Origin: an uncultured Lachnospiraceae bacterium
GTDB lineage: Bacteria > Bacillota > Clostridia > Lachnospirales > Lachnospiraceae
DNA length: 40,573 nucleotides
Direction: 5' to 3'
Assembly: GCA_945827805.1 (NCBI GenBank)
Contig: CALZOU010000008.1
Coordinates: 1 to 40,573, forward strand
Shown piece after piece: positions 311-11,713 of the stretch. How positions within the stretch are numbered: the first letter of the stretch is position 1; every line of letters begins with the position of its first letter. The position numbers and the translations under genes are program-made. The notes beneath the pieces were generated by a model, which worked only from the letters and a program-made list of their open reading frames with translations, was not told where the DNA came from and did no database searches.

Positions 311-1768
311 ATGAGCGAGCAAACTAAGAAAAAAGGCCTCAGCAAAGCGTTTGTCTGGTCACATGCTACTTCCGTAAATGGCGGTGCAATGCTGATCGCG
401 GCAACGATTGCAAGCTACTTTTCCCTGTACGCGCAGGAAACCATTGGTATTACAGCAGCACAGCTGTCCATCATTCTTCTGATCTGCTCCCTTTGGGATG
501 CTATCAATGATCCGATCATGGGTGTTATCTGTGATACCTACAAACCGAGATGGGGACGTTATCGTACCTGGTTCTTATTCACACCGGTTCTTCTGGTGAT
601 CGATATGTTCCTTCTGTTCTCCAATCCGTCCTTTATTCAGGACAATGTAATGGCAAAATGTATCTGGGTATGTGCAACATACATGCTGTATGGTATGATC
701 GTTACCGCATACACCATGCCGCAGATGGCTATTCTGCCGGCTATGACACTGGATGATCAGGAGAGAAACAGTGTTATTTCCAAAGGTGCCGGTGTCTGCG
801 CCCTTGCGTTCACCATCGCATCTACATTTAACACACAGCTGGTTAATATCTTTGGTGGAACTGAGGCGGGACAGCACGGTTATCGTAACCTGATGTGTCT
901 GTACTCTGTACTTGCTGTTGTATCCTTCTGGATGCTGTATAAGACATCAGAAGAAAGATACATTGCACCTAAGACAGACAAAGGTGGTCTGAAACAGCTG
1001 ATCTATGTATTCCGTCATAAAGAAGTATGGCCGGTTATGGTTGCCTGGTGTCTGGCTTCCGTTTCCTACGGATTTATGTTTACTTCTTCAGTTTACTATG
1101 CACAGTACATTCTGGCTCCGGCCCGTATCGATATGGCGAAGGTAGCAGAACTGGGTGAAGGTGCCATTGAGTATATCGGCGGAACTATTGGCGGAACTAT
1201 TTCTACATACATGGGTTTTGTTTCCATGGGTGCTCTGGTTTCCATGGTTGTCCTGATGCCGATCTTTCTTAAGGTTCTCAAGACCGGATATATGGCAATG
1301 ATCATTTCTCAGCTTCTGACTGTCATCTGCTATGTGATCCTGTTCTTCACAGGTAAGATGAACTTTATGTATTGCTGCGTACTGTCCTTTATTGCAACAG
1401 CTGTAGGTGCAATGGTAAATGCTCTGGTTAACGTATTTGTTAATGATACAATTGACTTTATCATGCTGAAAGAAGGAAAACAGCTGAATGGTATCATTGC
1501 TTCCGTTAAAGGTTTCGCACAGAAATGCGGTAACACAATCACAAACTCCGGTATGCTGGCTATTCTCGCTCTGTGTGGATTCGATGCACAGGCTGGCCCG
1601 CTGGGACAGACTGAAACAGCTATCATGGGAACAAACGTTGTACGTTTCGCAGTTCCGGCAGCTGTTTCCGCAGTTATTCTTCTGATCTGTATTTTCTATC
1701 CGCTGAAGAAATACTTCCCGGAGATCGCGCAGATGAAAGAAAAAATGGCAGCAGAACACGCTGAATAA
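311..1768 (+). CDS. GPH/MFS_2-family sugar:cation symporter
   Basis: 485 aa, many TM segments, motif WDAINDPIMGVICDTYKPRWGRYRTW typical of glycoside-pentoside-hexuronide symporters; RBS aaaaggagatattgta. Confidence 0.9.
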   Translation: MSEQTKKKGLSKAFVWSHATSVNGGAMLIAATIASYFSLYAQETIGITAAQLSIILLICSLWDAINDPIMGVICDTYKPRWGRYRTWFLFTPVLLVIDMFLLFSNPSFIQDNVMAKCIWVCATYMLYGMIVTAYTMPQMAILPAMTLDDQERNSVISKGAGVCALAFTIASTFNTQLVNIFGGTEAGQHGYRNLMCLYSVLAVVSFWMLYKTSEERYIAPKTDKGGLKQLIYVFRHKEVWPVMVAWCLASVSYGFMFTSSVYYAQYILAPARIDMAKVAELGEGAIEYIGGTIGGTISTYMGFVSMGALVSMVVLMPIFLKVLKTGYMAMIISQLLTVICYVILFFTGKMNFMYCCVLSFIATAVGAMVNALVNVFVNDTIDFIMLKEGKQLNGIIASVKGFAQKCGNTITNSGMLAILALCGFDAQAGPLGQTETAIMGTNVVRFAVPAAVSAVILLICIFYPLKKYFPEIAQMKEKMAAEHAE

Positions 1769-1930: not shown

Positions 1931-3061
1931 CTATTCTTTTTGACTAAAGGGAATAAATTCATCTTCATCCGTATGATGCATTTTCCGGTATTCCTGCGGA
2001 GACATTTTGTATTCAGAACGAAATACCCGGGAAAAATGATCAGCAGAATTATAACCCACTCGCAGAGCAATATCGTTGATCTTTAAATTCGTGTTCGTCA
2101 AAAGCGTCACCGCATCACTCAATTTTAGCTGTTTGATGAGATTCGTAAAGTTGTATCCGGTATTCTGTTTGATCAGAGTACACAGATGAGGTTCACTGTA
2201 ATGGAAAAACTCCGCCAGAGAAGACAGTGTCAGCGTCTGGTAATTGTGCTGAATGTACTGCAGTACCAGCGTAAAATCCGAACCCATCTGATAATTGTAA
2301 AACTGCAGGGTTTTGCTGTAATTACGCAGAAGATTAGAAAACATCAGCGTGATCCAGCTGATACAGCTGGCATTGGAGTATGTATCATTTTTGTAGCATT
2401 CTCCCATGGCGTTGTGAAGAATGGTTTTCATCCACTCATCATTGTCTGTGTAAAACAGAAGATAGTTGGCAGCGTTGTTTCCTTGAAGCATATTCCGGAA
2501 AAAATGAGCCAGAAGGTCATTCTGGGAGAGTACGGAATAAAAACTGCGATTAAAGGTGCTTTTCCGGATCATGATACAGAAAACGGTGGTGTCATCGTCG
2601 TTGATCTGAAGGTCATGCATGGAATTGGGAGCAATAATACAGAGCTCTCCCGTTTTTAACGTATGTTTTTCTTTTTCAAAAAACAGATGGCATTGACCCG
2701 TTGCTACGAAATTGATCTCAAAGTAGTTGTGAGAGTGCATCAGATGTCTCGTATAACGGGGATGGCGGATGATGAATACATCCCTTTCTTTGGGTATGAT
2801 GTCGTCTTCCTCTACTTCTGTGGACAGAACTTGTGAGGGGGTCAAAGTCAGGACCAGATTGTTAATGATTTCCTCAAATTCCTCATCTGACATACGATTA
2901 AACATGGATTTGGGGGATACGGTTGAAGGTCGTTCCGTGGATAATTCACCCCGCTTCCAAAGCATCTCAACCATCTCCGGAAATTGAAGCCGGCTGCCGG
3001 TGGCTAAATAGTATTCTTTCATTCTTTGCTGGAATTGTCCATAAGTAATATAGTAAGCCAT
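1931..3061 (-). CDS. AraC-family transcriptional regulator
   Basis: Cupin-like sensor region plus C-terminal HTH (INDIALRVGYNSADHFSRVFRSEYKMSPQEYRKM); start set at MAYYITYGQFQQ (ATG at 3061) after RBS aaaaaggagcatt rather than the longer ORF start. Confidence 0.88.
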   Translation of the reverse strand: MAYYITYGQFQQRMKEYYLATGSRLQFPEMVEMLWKRGELSTERPSTVSPKSMFNRMSDEEFEEIINNLVLTLTPSQVLSTEVEEDDIIPKERDVFIIRHPRYTRHLMHSHNYFEINFVATGQCHLFFEKEKHTLKTGELCIIAPNSMHDLQINDDDTTVFCIMIRKSTFNRSFYSVLSQNDLLAHFFRNMLQGNNAANYLLFYTDNDEWMKTILHNAMGECYKNDTYSNASCISWITLMFSNLLRNYSKTLQFYNYQMGSDFTLVLQYIQHNYQTLTLSSLAEFFHYSEPHLCTLIKQNTGYNFTNLIKQLKLSDAVTLLTNTNLKINDIALRVGYNSADHFSRVFRSEYKMSPQEYRKMHHTDEDEFIPFSQKE

Positions 3062-3423: not shown

Positions 3424-6207
3424 ATGAAGATAACGAATATTCGTATCAACGGTATTGTAAATCCGGTCGGATTTTCTTTTGACAGAATTTCCTGTTCCTG
3501 GTGTGTTGTAGGCACAGAAAGTAAAAAACAGAGTTTTGCCCGTATTGAAGTAAGTAAAAACGATGATTTTTCAGAGCTTACGTATGTGAAAGAGGGCAAA
3601 GATCTATGCCAGCAGTGGGAAGTTCTCTTATTCGCGCTGGAACCGAGAACCAGATATTACTACAGGATTCAGGTGACGGGAGATCAGGGAGACACTGCTG
3701 TCAGTGAGACCGCTTACTGGGAAACCGGAAAAATGTCGGAAAAGTGGGAGGCAGACTGGATCGCGCCCCAAAAAGAGGACAGTTTTCACCCCGTACTGCA
3801 CAAAGAGTATTCGGTTAAGGCTCCGGTAAAATGCGCCCGCCTCTATGCTACCGGTGTGGGCATGTTTGAAGCATGGATGGATAATAAGAAACTGGGACAG
3901 GAATATTTGATGCCCTGTGTTAATAATTACGAGAAAAATATCCAGACCATGACATTTCCCCTGGAAAACCTTGAGCCGGGAACACATTCTCTGGATCTGC
4001 TTTTAGGCAAGGGATGGTATATGGGAGTTTTCGGTCTGGAATTACAGAAAGAGAACTACGGTAATCGTATGGCCGCCATTGCGGAACTGCATCTGGAATA
4101 TGAGGATGGTACAAAAGAAACCGTATTGACAGATGATACCTGGACATATTGCGGATCCTGCATTGAGGACAGCGGTATCTATGACGGTGAAGTATATAAC
4201 GAACTGCTTTGGGAGAATAAAGATAATCCCAAAAAGCAGGTCGAGGTCATTGTTGATCCTGCCGGTGATGAGGGCACAAAAAATCTGGTTAAAGAACACC
4301 TGATGGATCGTCTGAGTCTTCCGGTGCTGATAAAAGAAACTCTGCCGGTACAGGAGATCATTTATACACCAGACGGAGATACGGTGCTGGATTTCGGGCA
4401 GAATTTTGCCGGATTTGTATCTTTTTCTTCTCGTCTGCCCCGTGGAACAAAAATCACTCTTGAGTGTGCGGAGATTCTGCAGGAGGGTAATTTCTATCAT
4501 GGGAATTATCGTGATGCGGCATCAACCTTTGTCTACATCTCTGACGGACAGGAGAAAACGGTGCGGCCGCATTTTACCTTCTTCGGTTTTCGCTACATTC
4601 GTGTGACAGGATGGCCGGGAGAGATCAATAAAGAAGATTTCACAGGAAATGTTCTCTATTCCGATATTACCAGAACGGGATATATCCATACCTGCAATGA
4701 AAAAATAAACAGATTGTATGAGAATACGCTCTGGGGATTAAAGAGCAATTTTATCGATATGCCGACGGATTGCCCGCAGAGAAGTGAGCGCCTGGGGTGG
4801 ACAGGTGATGCGCAGGTTTTTGCTCCTACAGCCAGCTATCATATGGATACACGGGCATTTTTCCATAAGTTTATGAAGGATCTTCGTGACGAACAGGAGT
4901 TTCTGGACGGCGGTATTCCCAATTATGTGCCAAACATTGGACATAAGGATGACTGCGGCAGTGTATGGGGGGATATCGGCACAATGCTGCCGGATGTGTA
5001 TTATACATACTACGGAGATCTCGGTGAAATTGAAAAACAGTACCCGATGATGAAAGACTGGGTGGATTATATTGACCGTCAGGATGCGGCCCGGGGAAGA
5101 AAGTATCTTTATGATACGGGCTTTCAGTTTGGAGACTGGCTGGCCTTGGACGGTGCTACACCCACCAGTTTTAAAGGAAGTACAGATGATGCCTATATCG
5201 GTTCTGTTTATTATTACCATTCCGCACAGATCGTCCGTAAAATGGCTGAGCGTCTGAATAAAACAGAAGACGCAGAGCACTATCGTGCACTGGAGGAGCA
5301 CATCCGAAAAGCCGTGCTGGCAGAGTTTTTCACACCGAACGGACGCCTGGCGGTGGATACACAGGCCGGCTACGTCGCAGCGCTGAAATTCGGGCTCTAT
5401 GTGGACAGGGACAAGCTGATCGAGCAGTTTATCGTGCGCCTGACAAAAGATATGAAGCAGATCAAGTGCGGATTTGTGGGGGCGCCGCTTCTGTGCACTG
5501 TGCTGGCGGAAGCCGGACTATATGAACTGGCCTATGATTTTCTTTTGAAAGAGGGATTCCCCAGCTGGCTTTACAGTGTAAACCTGGGTGCGACCACTGT
5601 CTGGGAGCGTTGGAATTCTGTAGGAGAGGACGGCGTGATCAGCGATACAGGTATGAATTCCCTGAATCATTATTCCTATGGATCTGTCATGGAATTCGTA
5701 TATGCCTACGCCGGCGGTATTCGTCCGATGGAACCGGGATTTAAAAAGGCTATCATTGATCCCCATCCTGATATCCGTTTGCCAAAACTGGAATGCCGGT
5801 ATGATTCTGTATCGGGTACTTATGTATGTAACTGGGAAATCTGCAGGGACGGTATGCTGCGTGTGCATGTGGAGATTCCGTTTAACTGTGAGGCATATGT
5901 GACATTGCCGGATCATGAGCCGATGACACTGGGCGCCGGTTCTTATGATTTTGCCTACATGCCCGCAAAAGATCTTCGCAAACCTTACAGCAGAAAGAGC
6001 ACATTGCTTCGTGTGGCAGCAGATCCGAAAGCTGTGGGTATACTGTTTGCTCATACGCCGGCTCTTGGCGGTATCGGTATGTCCGGCAATCAGGAGTTGG
6101 GCACAAAGACGCTAGAGGCTCTTTCTCATGACACGTTCCTTCCCTTTGATCCGCAGGAACTTGAGATCGCTATGAAGGAACTGGAAGATGTGATCGTTGA
6201 TTTATAA
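3424..6207 (+). CDS. GH78 alpha-L-rhamnosidase (apparently cytoplasmic)
   Basis: 927 aa; DMPTDCPQRSERLGWTGDAQVFAPTASYHMDTRAFFHKFMKDLRDEQ and GATTVWERWNS motifs of bacterial alpha-L-rhamnosidases; no signal peptide. Confidence 0.92.
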   Translation: MKITNIRINGIVNPVGFSFDRISCSWCVVGTESKKQSFARIEVSKNDDFSELTYVKEGKDLCQQWEVLLFALEPRTRYYYRIQVTGDQGDTAVSETAYWETGKMSEKWEADWIAPQKEDSFHPVLHKEYSVKAPVKCARLYATGVGMFEAWMDNKKLGQEYLMPCVNNYEKNIQTMTFPLENLEPGTHSLDLLLGKGWYMGVFGLELQKENYGNRMAAIAELHLEYEDGTKETVLTDDTWTYCGSCIEDSGIYDGEVYNELLWENKDNPKKQVEVIVDPAGDEGTKNLVKEHLMDRLSLPVLIKETLPVQEIIYTPDGDTVLDFGQNFAGFVSFSSRLPRGTKITLECAEILQEGNFYHGNYRDAASTFVYISDGQEKTVRPHFTFFGFRYIRVTGWPGEINKEDFTGNVLYSDITRTGYIHTCNEKINRLYENTLWGLKSNFIDMPTDCPQRSERLGWTGDAQVFAPTASYHMDTRAFFHKFMKDLRDEQEFLDGGIPNYVPNIGHKDDCGSVWGDIGTMLPDVYYTYYGDLGEIEKQYPMMKDWVDYIDRQDAARGRKYLYDTGFQFGDWLALDGATPTSFKGSTDDAYIGSVYYYHSAQIVRKMAERLNKTEDAEHYRALEEHIRKAVLAEFFTPNGRLAVDTQAGYVAALKFGLYVDRDKLIEQFIVRLTKDMKQIKCGFVGAPLLCTVLAEAGLYELAYDFLLKEGFPSWLYSVNLGATTVWERWNSVGEDGVISDTGMNSLNHYSYGSVMEFVYAYAGGIRPMEPGFKKAIIDPHPDIRLPKLECRYDSVSGTYVCNWEICRDGMLRVHVEIPFNCEAYVTLPDHEPMTLGAGSYDFAYMPAKDLRKPYSRKSTLLRVAADPKAVGILFAHTPALGGIGMSGNQELGTKTLEALSHDTFLPFDPQELEIAMKELEDVIVDL

Positions 6208-6294
6208 TTACAATATGTTTATGGTATAGATTACAATTGCAGAAGATGTAATTTTGGAAAATATGATTATAGAAAAATTAAAGGAGATAAGTAT

Positions 6295-8004
6295 ATGATC
6301 GATTTAAAAGCAAATCCGTTTTTCCTGAGCGATGAGCAGATCAACTGGGTTGAAAAGACTCTGGCCGGAATGTCACAGGAAGAAAAAATCGGACAGATGT
6401 TCTGCCCCATCGGCGGAAATACAGATCCCAAATTCTTAAAAAGATTCGTTGAGGAATTCCACCCCGGTGCTATGATGTATCGACCTATGCCGGCAGCAGA
6501 GGTGCAAAGGACCCACCGCACTTTGCAGCATGCATCCAGAATTCCGCTGCTGTTTGCGGCAAATCTGGAGTCAGGAGGAAATGGCATATGCGCTGACGGT
6601 ACATATTTTTCCCGTCCCATGGGCGTGGCGGCTTCGGATCATGAGGAAAATGCATGGCGTCTTGGCGATATCGCAGGAAAGGAAGCAAAAGCCGTAGGCT
6701 GTAACTGGGCTTTTGCGCCGATCTGTGACCTGGATATGAACTGGAGAAATCCCATCATGAATGTGCGTACCTTTGGTACGGATCAGGAGAAAGTCATTTC
6801 CTATACACTGCAGCAGCTGAAAGGACTCAAAGCCAATGGAGTGGAAGCGGCAACAAAGCATTTCCCCGGTGATGGTGTGGATGAAAGAGACCAGCATCTG
6901 CTGGCATCCGTCAACAGTCTGTCTGTAGAAGAATATGATGCTACCTATGGAAAAATATGGCAGGCAGTTGTGGATGCAGGTTCTATGTCTATTATGGTCG
7001 GACACATTCTGCAGCCGGCATATGCAAAGCATTTTAATCCTGAGCTGAAGGATGAAGAGATTCTTCCGGCTACTCTTTCTAAAGAGATCCTGCAGGGACT
7101 TTTACGCGGCAAACTTGGCTTTAACGGCATGATCGTTACGGATGCGACACCCATGGTCGGATTTAATGTCAACATGCCCCGTAAGAAGGCTATCGCTGCA
7201 TCGATCAGTGCCGGATGCGACATGATCCTGTTTAACAAAGATATCCATGAGGATTATCAGGCTGTTCGTGACGCGATCGCAGAGGGCACGCTGACTATGG
7301 AACGTGTGGACGAAGCCGTGACAAGAATTCTGGCAATGAAAGCCGCCATGGGGCTTCATGATGCACAGGCCGAGGGTACACTGGTGCCGGAAGAAGATGC
7401 CCTTTCTGTTGTAGGGTGCAAAGCACATAAAGAAATGACGGCAGAGTGTGCGAAACAGGCAGTAACTCTGGTAAAAGATACACAGAAACTTTTGCCCATC
7501 TCGCCGGAGAAAACGAAAAGGATCCGTCTGTACATTCTGGAAGACAGAGTGGGCGGCGGATTTAAAGACGGCGACGGAGCAGTCAGTCTGTTCAAAGAGA
7601 AACTTGAAAAAGAAGGCTTTGAAGTCAGCCTGTTCGATTACGGAAAACCGGACTTCTTTGAAATGTTTGAAGGCGGTGTGGATTATGCGAAAAATAAATT
7701 TGATCTGGCCATTTATGTGGCTTGTATTGATACCGCCAGCAATCAATCGGTGCGAAGAATCGATTGGGTGCATCTGATGGCTGCAGACGCTCCGTGGTTT
7801 GTGGCAGATATTCCGGCGCTGTTTATTTCGCTTGCTAATCCATATCACCTTGTAGATGTGCCCATGGTCAAGACATTTGTTAATGCCTACACACCTACAG
7901 AAGAGGTGATCGATGCTGTGGTTGAAAAGATCATGGGACGTGAAGAGTTTACCGGTGTTAATCCGGTGGATCCGTTCTGCGGTATCTGGGGGGCGAAGTT
8001 TTAA
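6295..8004 (+). CDS. GH3, NagZ-type (Asp-His dyad) beta-glycosidase/phosphorylase
   Basis: KHFPGDGVDERDQHL (dyad D199/H201) and GMIVTDATPMVGF nucleophile region; RBS aaaggagataagtat. Confidence 0.85.
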   Translation: MIDLKANPFFLSDEQINWVEKTLAGMSQEEKIGQMFCPIGGNTDPKFLKRFVEEFHPGAMMYRPMPAAEVQRTHRTLQHASRIPLLFAANLESGGNGICADGTYFSRPMGVAASDHEENAWRLGDIAGKEAKAVGCNWAFAPICDLDMNWRNPIMNVRTFGTDQEKVISYTLQQLKGLKANGVEAATKHFPGDGVDERDQHLLASVNSLSVEEYDATYGKIWQAVVDAGSMSIMVGHILQPAYAKHFNPELKDEEILPATLSKEILQGLLRGKLGFNGMIVTDATPMVGFNVNMPRKKAIAASISAGCDMILFNKDIHEDYQAVRDAIAEGTLTMERVDEAVTRILAMKAAMGLHDAQAEGTLVPEEDALSVVGCKAHKEMTAECAKQAVTLVKDTQKLLPISPEKTKRIRLYILEDRVGGGFKDGDGAVSLFKEKLEKEGFEVSLFDYGKPDFFEMFEGGVDYAKNKFDLAIYVACIDTASNQSVRRIDWVHLMAADAPWFVADIPALFISLANPYHLVDVPMVKTFVNAYTPTEEVIDAVVEKIMGREEFTGVNPVDPFCGIWGAKF

Positions 8005-8021
8005 CCGTTGATTATTTGAGA

Positions 8022-8049
8022 AACTACCGGCAGTATCAGGCCGGTAGTT
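8022..8049 (+). other. Intercistronic hairpin without U-tract
   Basis: aactaccggc-agtatcag-gccggtagtt, perfect 10-bp stem between GH3 and pgmB. Confidence 0.7.
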
Positions 8050-8109
8050 CATCGTAGTTTATGAAAAATGGGAGCTTTATCATGGCTCCGGCAAAAGGAG
8101 AATACTATT

Positions 8110-8745
8110 ATGAAATTTAAGGGAATTATTTTTGATCTGGATGGTGTGATCTGTTTTACCGATAAATATCACTATCAGGCATGGAAACAGATGGCAGATA
8201 AAGAAGGTATCTATTTTGACGAGATCATCAACAACCGTCTTCGCGGCGTAAGCCGTATGGCCAGCCTTGAGATCATTCTGGAACGCGCCGATAAAGCCTA
8301 CACAGAAGAAGAAAAAGAGCAGATGGCATATGAAAAAAATGAGACATACAAAAAACTGCTCTACAACATGACCACACAAGACCTGAGCCAGGAAGTAAAG
8401 GATACCCTGAACGCACTCCGCGCAAAAGGCTGTAAACTGGCCATTGGTTCTTCCAGCCGTAATACGAAACTGATTCTGGGACAGCTGGGGCTGGCTGATT
8501 ACTTCGATGCCATCAGCGACGGAACCAATATAACGAGATCCAAACCGGATCCCGAGGTATTCCTGAAAGCAGCCGATTTCCTCGGCCTTCAGCCTGAAGA
8601 CTGCCTCGTAGTAGAGGACGCCGTAGCAGGTATCGACGCAGCCTGCGCAGGCGGTTTCGAAAGCGCAGGTCTCGGTGAAGCGGCAGAATATGAGAAATGC
8701 ACATATCCGATGAGGAGCTTTGGAGATTTGGTTAATATAGGATAA
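8110..8745 (+). CDS. pgmB: Beta-phosphoglucomutase
   Basis: MKFKGIIFDLDGVICFTDKYHYQAWKQMADKEGI; NNRLRGVSRMASLEIIL; IGSSSRNTKLIL; start at MKFKG rather than ORF start 8068. Confidence 0.9.
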   Translation: MKFKGIIFDLDGVICFTDKYHYQAWKQMADKEGIYFDEIINNRLRGVSRMASLEIILERADKAYTEEEKEQMAYEKNETYKKLLYNMTTQDLSQEVKDTLNALRAKGCKLAIGSSSRNTKLILGQLGLADYFDAISDGTNITRSKPDPEVFLKAADFLGLQPEDCLVVEDAVAGIDAACAGGFESAGLGEAAEYEKCTYPMRSFGDLVNIG

Positions 8746-8777
8746 GACAGTGGCCCTTAACAAAGGAAGGATAAAAA

Positions 8778-9743
8778 ATGAAGAGTGAAGTGATAACATT
8801 ATTAAAAGATCGTGAGGATGTCACACTGACAACCTATATTCTGGAGGATTCTCCGGAAATGCTGAATGTTAATAAACGACCGGCAGTGATTGTGTGTCCG
8901 GGTGGTGCTTACCTGAGCTGCTCTGACCGGGAAGGGGAGCCTGTTGCCCTTGCATTTACCCGTATGGGATATCATGCATTTGTGCTTCGCTACTCAGTTG
9001 CATTAAATCCGGGAGAAAACGGATTTGAAACAGATCTGATGGCAATTGAGCCAAAGGCAGAGCGCATGCATCCACAGCCCATGAGGGACATTGCAGAGGC
9101 ATTTATGTGTATTCATGCTCATGCGGATGAGTGGAAGGTGGATACAGGTAGGATCGCGATCTGTGGTTTTTCGGCGGGAGCTCATAACTGCGCAATGTAT
9201 TCCACTCACTGGGCAAAGCCGGTGATTACAGAATATGCCGGTGCAGATAAAGAACAGCTTCGCCCGGCAGCATGTATTCTTGGATATCCTCTGACGGATT
9301 ATGTATTTATGAAAGAAAATGCGTCCAAAGATCCCGGCAATTTTGCCTTTTTTAATGGATCTAACACACAGTTTCTGGGAAGAGACTGGGATCAGGAGGA
9401 ACCTATGGTGGATGCAAGCCCGGCAAGACTTGTGGATGAGAATACACCGCCGACTTTTATATGGTCTACGGCAGCTGATAAGCTGGTTCCTGTTCAGCAC
9501 TCGGCTCTTTATGCATTTGCTCTGGCAGAGAAAAACATTCCGTTTGAGATCCATATTTTCCAGGATTGTGATCACGGACTGGCCATGGCAGATCAGTCCA
9601 GTGCATCTGCAATGAGTCAGATCAGTTCTGATGCAAGAAAATGGGTGGATCTGTGTGAAGCGTGGCTTTATAAATATTTTGCGATTAAGCTTCCGGAGAA
9701 GACGGCATGGGAGTCCATGGTGGCTCAGGAAATCGGTAAGTGA
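8778..9743 (+). CDS. Alpha/beta hydrolase, acetyl-esterase-like
   Basis: RPAVIVCPGGAYLSCSDREGEPVALAFTRMGYHAFVLRYSV; nucleophile elbow CGFSAGAH; DHGL near the C-terminus. Confidence 0.85.
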   Translation: MKSEVITLLKDREDVTLTTYILEDSPEMLNVNKRPAVIVCPGGAYLSCSDREGEPVALAFTRMGYHAFVLRYSVALNPGENGFETDLMAIEPKAERMHPQPMRDIAEAFMCIHAHADEWKVDTGRIAICGFSAGAHNCAMYSTHWAKPVITEYAGADKEQLRPAACILGYPLTDYVFMKENASKDPGNFAFFNGSNTQFLGRDWDQEEPMVDASPARLVDENTPPTFIWSTAADKLVPVQHSALYAFALAEKNIPFEIHIFQDCDHGLAMADQSSASAMSQISSDARKWVDLCEAWLYKYFAIKLPEKTAWESMVAQEIGK

Positions 9744-10944: not shown

Positions 10945-11713
10945 GATTTGTACACGAAGATTGCTGAAAGAAAGCGGTTATAATGCAATTCGAACAAGCC
11001 ACAATCCTATGAGCACTGCTTTGCTGGATGCCTGTGATAAATATGGCATGCTTGTAATGGATGAACTTTTTGATTGCTGGAGAGCCAAGAAGAATCCAGG
11101 GGATTATCATTTGTATTTTGAACATTGCTGGAAGGAAGATACAGCATCCGTGATACTTCGTGATCGTAATCATCCTTCGGTGGTCATGTACAGCATTGGC
11201 AATGAAATTGGTGAACGCGATGGCAGTGGACACGGGGCACAGATATCCCATGATCTGGCAGCCTATGTTCGAACACTGGACAATACCCGTGCGATCACAA
11301 ATGGTGTATGCATGATCTTTCTGGATGCAGGGGAATTCGGCGGGATTCTGGCAAATATATTCGGCAGTGGCGAAGAAATTGATTTTAAAGCGCTGCCAAA
11401 GGAAATTACAGAACTTCTGGCCAAAGGCGATCATTTGAAATGCGAACGTATTCAGGAATGTGAGCAGGATGTGGAAATTTATGAAATAAAGATGGTGGAT
11501 GCGCAGGGAAATCGTGTAGTCTGGTTCCAGGGTAAAATAAAGGCAGATATTCCCCAGGGAACAAAACTTATGGGCTTAGGTACAGGAAATCCCGTATCGG
11601 AAGAAGACTATTTCTCAGATACGTGCAGTTTATATGAAGGACGTGCATTGCTGGTGATTCGCAGAGATACTGTCTCTGCCGAGGTTCCTGTTGTTCGCCT
11701 TGCGGAAGAATAA
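10945..11713 (+). pseudogene. GH2 beta-galactosidase/glucuronidase remnant (5' truncated, internal in-frame deletion)
   Basis: LLKESGYNAIRTSHNPMSTALLDACDKYGMLVMDELFD...HPSVVMYSIGNEIGE aligns with the intact GH2 at 17747-20173, but the N-terminal domains and nucleophile region are absent; frame begins mid-domain with no RBS. Confidence 0.85.

What the first reader, a model, noticed from the sequence alone, without database searches (positions are those of the whole stretch)
3424..9743. Candidate rhamnosyl-glucoside pathway in which a GH3 phosphorylase may feed beta-phosphoglucomutase
Seen: GH78 rhamnosidase, NagZ-type GH3, beta-PGM and an esterase in tandem, behind a GPH symporter and an AraC regulator, with no obvious signal peptides. 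The GH3 has the Asp-His dyad motif (KHFPGDGVDERDQHL, D199/H201) and not only the canonical SDW-type arrangement. Known: beta-PGM uses beta-glucose 1-phosphate, and some NagZ-type GH3 enzymes with this His acid/base are retaining phosphorylases. No GH65 or GH94 phosphorylase is visible in the window to supply beta-PGM. Inference: imported rhamnosyl-beta-glucosides (rutinose- or neohesperidose-type, perhaps plant glycosides) lose rhamnose via GH78, then the beta-glucoside is phosphorolysed to beta-G1P, which PgmB converts to G6P.
Basis: partly seen in the sequence, partly recalled or inferred. Interest (0 to 1): 0.78.

Follow-up and report, generated by a model that had tools for sequence, protein, structure and literature searches.

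The report
Phosphate-using route for rhamnosyl-glucosides
This gut-type bacterium carries a gene set that probably imports plant-type sugar conjugates, trims off rhamnose, and then splits off the glucose with phosphate instead of water, so the glucose comes out already phosphorylated; the same partnership recurs in dozens of other bacteria but I found no published description of it.

Summary
At 3424-9743 lie GH78, a NagZ-type GH3, beta-phosphoglucomutase (beta-PGM) and an esterase, all on one strand and without signal peptides. The GH3 is a full-length homologue of BglP/BglX (PDB 5VQD/5VQE), a characterised GH3 beta-glucoside phosphorylase: 540 bits against 177 for the next hit, Foldseek TM 0.93, same D-Q-H motif. 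The window's genome (an 86%-complete MAG) has one beta-PGM and no GH65, the usual source of beta-glucose 1-phosphate. In 250 genomes of the family, all 20 with a BglP-clade GH3 have beta-PGM, against 21 of 230 others (p=1.6e-18). Among GH65-negative genomes it is 10/10 against 3/206. Of 53 named loci with full context, 42 have beta-PGM and 31 a GH78 within 10 kb, in several gene orders; the sister GH3 clades have 1/41 and 3/41. Two fusions were found: GH78-betaPGM beside the GH3, and GH3-betaPGM. GH3 phosphorolysis feeding beta-PGM is therefore very likely. Rhamnosyl-beta-glucosides are a good but unproven substrate guess; linkage type and the order of GH78 and GH3 action are untested.

The parts
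311..1768 (+). GPH/MFS_2-type sugar:cation symporter, probable importer
   Evidence: Pfam PF13347 7e-54; TIGR00792 209 bits, just under its cut-off of 231; homologues sit with the same gene set in L040, L043, L044
1931..3061 (-). AraC-family regulator, divergent from GH78 (start at the ATG complement 3059-3061)
   Evidence: Pfam HTH_18 and AraC_binding; start read; related AraC genes in 10 clade loci
3424..6207 (+). GH78 alpha-L-rhamnosidase, 927 aa, no signal peptide, catalytic Glu455/Glu728 kept
   Evidence: PF17389 5e-106 and four further GH78 domains; PDB 3W5M 446 bits
6295..8004 (+). GH3 beta-glucoside phosphorylase (BglP type), 569 aa; D199/Q200/H201 motif, nucleophile D283
   Evidence: 5VQD 540 bits full length; AlphaFold model pLDDT 91, TM 0.93 to 5VQE; tree clade with BglP
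8021..8049 (+). 9-10 bp perfect hairpin between GH3 and beta-PGM (ACTACCGGC...GCCGGTAGT); role unknown
   Evidence: sequence; RNA fold z = -3.3 for 8000-8115
8110..8745 (+). beta-phosphoglucomutase PgmB, 211 aa (the mechanical ORF starts at 8068)
   Evidence: TIGR01990 over cut-off, 241 bits; PDB 3NAS/4GIB beta-PGM about 150 bits; only one over cut-off in the genome
8778..9743 (+). alpha/beta-hydrolase esterase, GFSAG at 130, lp_1002-arylesterase-like (below that model's cut-off)
   Evidence: PF20434 4e-21; NF052620 188 bits against cut-off 300; 56% identical homologues in the same gene set in L043 and L044
9725..10885 (-). second AraC-family regulator, convergent with the esterase; possibly belongs to the next cluster

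Best explanation
The locus is an intracellular phosphorolytic route for beta-glucosides, most often rhamnose-capped ones. A symporter brings in the glycoside (inferred), GH78 removes terminal alpha-L-rhamnose (family-level inference), and the GH3 cleaves the beta-glucosidic bond with phosphate through a covalent glucosyl-enzyme on D283, with H201/D199 as the acid/base dyad, releasing beta-glucose 1-phosphate and the aglycone or shorter sugar. PgmB then isomerises beta-glucose 1-phosphate to glucose 6-phosphate, which saves one ATP per glucose compared with hydrolysis plus glucokinase. Rhamnose goes to the RhaA pathway encoded elsewhere. The esterase may remove acyl groups such as hydroxycinnamoyl or acetyl from the glycoside (weak inference). 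Shown here: gene identities, active-site residues, predicted fold, and conserved linkage. Inferred: catalytic activity, substrate, reaction order, co-transcription.
For: Closest solved relative by far is the beta-glucoside phosphorylase BglX/BglP; the review PMC8950772 reports it as a retaining GH3 phosphorylase with beta-Glc1P as donor in reverse. Q200, the residue where NagZ has Ser, is conserved with BglP. One beta-PGM and no GH65 in the genome. Genome co-occurrence is 20/20 against 21/230, while other GH3s of the same superfamily show none (4/24 against 37/226). Beta-PGM lies within 10 kb in 42/53 full-context named loci from Lachnospiraceae, Bacillus, Neobacillus, Vibrio, Treponema and others, adjacent upstream, adjacent downstream or with GH78 between; against the sister clades 18/25 versus 1/41 for beta-PGM and 14/25 versus 3/41 for GH78. 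GH78-betaPGM fusion next to the GH3 (L046) and GH3-betaPGM fusion (L104). Melissococcus plutonius plasmid operon annotated beta-hexosamidase A / rhamnosidase / beta-PGM / beta-xylosidase. RhaA present in the genome.
Against: No assay. His-dyad GH3s can be plain hydrolases (RmNag3 in PMC6987092, which also cites H. seropedicae NagZ). About 40% of the full-context GH3 loci lack a GH78 nearby, so rhamnose is not a universal part of the substrate. The two nearest relatives (G231, G192) carry a GH65 beside the GH3, intact in one and broken in the other, so beta-PGM may have another supplier there. The MAG is 86% complete. Both fusions were each seen once, in single genomes.
Confidence: 0.78

Rival explanations
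1. The phosphorolytic GH3-PgmB core is right, but the substrate is not a rhamnosyl-beta-glucoside: the GH3 works on cello-oligosaccharides or on beta-glucosyl-rhamnose structures (glucose outermost, GH3 first, GH78 second), or the GH78 serves a different substrate imported by the same transporter.
For: BglP is reported to phosphorolyse beta-1,4 cello-oligosaccharides (PMC8950772); 22 of 53 full-context loci have no GH78; both enzymes are exo-acting, so order cannot be read from the genes.
Against: GH78 is a common extra hydrolase here (31/53 named loci; 14/25 against 3/41 in the sister clades), it is physically fused to beta-PGM in L046, and the window has no beta-glucanase in this cluster.
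Confidence: 0.35
2. The GH3 is an ordinary hydrolase (beta-glucosidase or beta-N-acetylglucosaminidase, as database names such as beta-hexosaminidase A suggest) and PgmB serves another enzyme.
For: Some His-dyad GH3 enzymes show no phosphate effect; annotation names homologues hexosaminidase.
Against: Full-length match to BglP, D-Q-H rather than D-S-H, no GH65 in the genome, and 10/10 against 3/206 association in GH65-negative genomes.
Confidence: 0.08
3. The association is inherited neighbourhood: beta-PGM was brought in with a GH65 (as in G231) and simply remained after GH65 was lost.
For: G231 has GH65 between GH78 and beta-PGM, and G192 has a broken GH65.
Against: GH65 is in only 1 of 53 full-context loci; linkage recurs across distant genera in several gene orders and on a plasmid; at least 8 state changes on the tree.
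Confidence: 0.06

Closest known systems
BglP/BglX GH3 beta-glucoside phosphorylase (uncultured bacterium, PDB 5VQD/5VQE; Macdonald et al. 2018 J Biol Chem, as cited in PMC8950772)
   Same: Full-length homology (46% identity in the structural alignment, TM 0.93), D-x-H dyad, Gln between them, same clade
   Different: BglP came from an activity screen; I could not read that paper, and no beta-PGM/GH78 context for it was found in the library searched
Nag3 of Cellulomonas fimi, GH3 N-acetylglucosaminide phosphorylase (Macdonald et al. 2015, cited in PMC8950772)
   Same: NagZ-type GH3 with His acid/base and phosphorolysis
   Different: Makes GlcNAc-1-phosphate in peptidoglycan recycling; no beta-PGM partner is expected
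GH65 maltose phosphorylase plus beta-PGM operons (e.g. the maltose PUL of Lactobacillus, PMC8208680)
   Same: Phosphorylase gives beta-Glc1P, PgmB converts it to Glc6P, clustered genes
   Different: GH65 is inverting and cleaves alpha-glucosides; here a retaining GH3 cleaves beta-glucosides
Rhamnosidase + beta-glucosidase deglycosylation of flavonoid rutinosides (lactobacilli, naringinase)
   Same: GH78 first, then removal of beta-glucose
   Different: Glucose is released by hydrolysis and must be phosphorylated with ATP or PEP

Membership tests
GH3 beta-glucoside phosphorylase (BglP type) | Asp-His dyad as acid/base in the NagZ-type loop | tested here: met
   D199/H201, invariant in 31 homologues
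GH3 beta-glucoside phosphorylase (BglP type) | Gln at the position where GlcNAc enzymes have Ser (role of Gln recalled from the 2018 abstract; its mapping to Q200 is my inference) | tested here: met
   Q200 in the window and BglP, S in YbbD
GH3 beta-glucoside phosphorylase (BglP type) | Same fold and overall architecture as 5VQD/5VQE | tested here: met
   TM 0.93, whole length
GH3 beta-glucoside phosphorylase (BglP type) | Phosphate-dependent turnover yielding beta-glucose 1-phosphate | not testable with these tools
   Needs an enzyme assay; genomic proxy (beta-PGM linkage) met
beta-phosphoglucomutase (TIGR01990) | Score over the curated equivalog cut-off | tested here: met
   241 against 189.4 bits
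GH78 alpha-L-rhamnosidase | Catalytic (alpha/alpha)6 domain with both catalytic Glu residues | tested here: met
   PF17389 355 bits; E455 and E728
GH78 alpha-L-rhamnosidase | Activity on rhamnosyl-glucosides such as rutinosides | not testable with these tools
   Needs an enzyme assay
GH65-type beta-Glc1P supply | A GH65 in the genome | tested here: not met
   None in the held genome, which is 86% complete
   GH94 present on C24, but GH94 enzymes are listed with alpha-Glc1P as donor (PMC8950772)

The most novel reading that the evidence does not exclude
A widespread, undescribed phosphorolytic pathway for plant rhamnosyl-beta-glucosides (GH78 + retaining GH3 phosphorylase + PgmB) operates in gut and soil Firmicutes and beyond, giving GH3 beta-glucoside phosphorylases a physiological role. 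Sister clades of the same GH3 group (Ala or Gln at position 200), almost never with beta-PGM but paired with an uncharacterised HAD protein, often in glucuronate-catabolism loci, would be a second phosphorylase class, possibly acting on beta-glucuronides.
Probability: 0.55. Interest if true: 0.72.

Novelty: new variant of a known kind. Interest (0 to 1): 0.62.

Why it matters
Gut bacteria that deglycosylate flavonoid and other plant glycosides are generally taken to use hydrolases. A phosphorolytic branch would change the energy yield, would mean that genes now named beta-hexosaminidase are misannotated, and would provide a large set of retaining beta-glucoside phosphorylases for synthesis. 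It would also say what the enzyme class founded on BglP is for.

Tried and rejected
Searched for GH65 and GH94 in the genome: GH65 absent, GH94 present but gives alpha-Glc1P. Tested whether the association is a property of all NagZ-like GH3s: it is not; the sister clades show no beta-PGM enrichment. Apparent 845-aa open frame over GH3 and beta-PGM in the window: rejected as a fusion, three stops lie between the genes. Searched 392 genomes for more copies of the GH3-betaPGM fusion: the full-length query was swamped by beta-PGM hits, and the GH3 part alone gave nothing at E<=1e-90. The primary BglP and Nag3 papers are not held. Ten literature searches found no description of a GH3/beta-PGM/GH78 pathway; the library lacks most subscription journals.

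Full report
OBSERVATION. The four tandem genes are real: GH78 3424-6207, GH3 6295-8004, beta-PGM (likely start 8110) and esterase 8778-9743, all on +. Gaps are 87, 105 and 32 bases, each with a plausible ribosome site; the terminator scan shows no T-tailed terminator in these gaps, though a 9-10 bp hairpin without a T-run stands at 8021-8049. Co-transcription is inferred. The GPH symporter is upstream on + but is separated from GH78 by an AraC gene on - that diverges from GH78.

GH3 IDENTITY. Against PDB sequences the first hit is the beta-glucoside phosphorylase BglX/BglP (5VQD/5VQE) at 540 bits over residues 5-568; the next, B. subtilis YbbD, has 177 bits over part of the protein. An AlphaFold model built from the window and 30 named homologues (pLDDT 91) matches 5VQE at TM 0.93, r.m.s.d. 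2.2 A, 46% identity, against 0.79 for YbbD. D199, Q200, H201 and nucleophile D283 are invariant in those 31 sequences. YbbD has Ser at the Q200 position. From memory, the 2018 BglP abstract says a Gln in the active site sets glucoside versus GlcNAc specificity and that Gln-to-Ser swaps it; I could not open the paper and its mapping to Q200 is my inference. The open review PMC8950772 confirms BglP as a retaining GH3 phosphorylase and lists GH65 enzymes with beta-Glc1P and GH94 enzymes with alpha-Glc1P. Caution: the His dyad alone does not prove phosphorolysis (RmNag3, PMC6987092).

WHO FEEDS PgmB. The window's genome (MAG, 2.39 Mb, 85.6% complete) has one beta-PGM over the TIGR01990 cut-off, one such GH3, no GH65, and a GH94 that cannot feed beta-PGM. 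RhaA for rhamnose use is present.

CO-OCCURRENCE. In 250 family genomes (249 genera) I searched for the GH3, beta-PGM and GH65. A tree of 65 GH3 homologues with BglP and YbbD puts the window and BglP in one set of 25 rows (support 87). All 20 genomes with a member of that set have beta-PGM, against 21 of 230 others (p=1.6e-18); the remaining GH3-bearing genomes show no enrichment (4/24). Of 13 genomes with beta-PGM but no GH65, 10 have a BglP-clade GH3 and an eleventh (G198) a more distant GH3 of the group; in GH65-negative genomes the table is 10/0 against 3/203 (p=6e-15). One of the other two, G161, turned out to carry a GH3-betaPGM fusion. Limits: candidates per genome were capped in the search, so beta-PGM counts are lower bounds; some contigs are short; genomes are related, so the p-values overstate independence.

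LINKAGE. Within about 10 kb, 18 of 25 clade loci have beta-PGM and 14 a GH78, against 1 and 3 of 41 loci of the other GH3 clades (p=1e-9 and 2e-5). In an independent scan of GTDB species genomes (the 80 best matches, so biased to close homologues) 57 of 80 loci have beta-PGM; of 53 with at least 5 kb on both sides, 42 have beta-PGM, 31 a GH78, 1 a GH65. In 73 of 75 linked loci from both sets the nearest beta-PGM is on the same strand as the GH3. The order varies among the named loci: adjacent downstream (29), downstream with GH78 between (11), adjacent upstream (9), others apart. L043 and L044 carry the window's whole set GPH/GH78/GH3/beta-PGM/esterase in other orders; many others use a CUT2-type ABC importer instead. 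Hosts include Lachnospiraceae, Bacillus, Neobacillus, Vibrio, Treponema and Erysipelotrichaceae. A Melissococcus plutonius plasmid has it annotated as beta-hexosamidase A / rhamnosidase / beta-phosphoglucomutase / beta-xylosidase.

FUSIONS. L046:6850-8976(-) is one 709-aa frame, short GH78 plus beta-PGM (TIGR01990 235 bits), directly beside the GH3. L104:7991-10267(-) is one frame of about 760 aa, NagZ-type GH3 (motif KHYPGFG...DSH) plus beta-PGM (230 bits), in a genome without GH65. Each was seen once. The second is striking because its motif is D-S-H, so phosphorolysis coupled to beta-PGM may have arisen in another GH3 branch too.

MECHANISM. Most likely: import, GH78 trimming, GH3 phosphorolysis to beta-Glc1P, PgmB to Glc6P. 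The GH3-PgmB coupling I put at about 0.9; rhamnosyl-beta-glucosides as the substrate class at about 0.6; the order GH78-then-GH3 is unproven. The esterase recurs in only a few loci, so acyl-ester removal is a weak inference.

NOVELTY. BglP-type GH3 phosphorylases and GH65/PgmB operons are known separately. Their combination with GH78 was not found in any of ten literature searches, limited to an open-licence library. I rate it a new variant of a known kind.

Noticed in passing
L104:7991-10267 (-), genome G161 of the same family: Single frame of about 760 aa fusing a NagZ-type GH3 (DSH motif) to a beta-phosphoglucomutase, beside glucuronate isomerase and a short-chain dehydrogenase; the genome has no GH65. 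No second copy found in 392 genomes of the order.
   Followed up: partly
L046:6850-8976 (-), genome G077: Natural fusion of a short GH78 (PF21104 type) with beta-PGM next to a BglP-type GH3; another genus (L047) has the same GH78 unfused.
   Followed up: partly
L086-L101 and other sister-clade loci, e.g. L094:8126-8977 (+): Sister clades of the BglP-type GH3 (position 200 Ala in 13, Gln in most others) nearly all lack beta-PGM, but 29 loci have an uncharacterised HAD protein of about 284 aa (DSDGCAMDT motif, no NCBIfam or PDB hit), usually close to the GH3, often with UxaC, UxuA, an UxuB-like reductase, a PfkB kinase, KDPG aldolase and a beta-glucuronidase-like GH2: possibly a glucuronide phosphorylase pathway.
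   Followed up: partly
L224:5195-7549 (-), genome G565: 785-aa frame fusing beta-PGM (N-terminal) to a GH13 alpha-amylase-type enzyme, next to a GH65.
   Followed up: no
window 8021-8049: Strong 9-10 bp hairpin (ACTACCGGC/GCCGGTAGT) between GH3 and beta-PGM without a T-run; RNA fold z = -3.3 for the surrounding 116 nt. Could be an mRNA processing or stability element.
   Followed up: partly
window 10961-11713: GH2 remnant of 250 aa: part of the TIM barrel of a GalB-like enzyme joined to a C-terminal domain, lacking the N-terminal part and the rest of the barrel; looks like a decayed gene.
   Followed up: no
L040:3720-8033 and L041:8071-8930: Closest relatives (77-78% identical GH3) have GH65 genes beside the GH3, one intact in G231 and broken into pieces in G192, whereas the window has none.
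   Followed up: partly
L239, L241 (plasmids of L. plantarum and Enterococcus innesii): BglP-type GH3 in a PTS EIIC / GH1 / GH2 operon with a MurR/RpiR regulator on plasmids, without beta-PGM or GH78 nearby: a different use of the same GH3.
   Followed up: no
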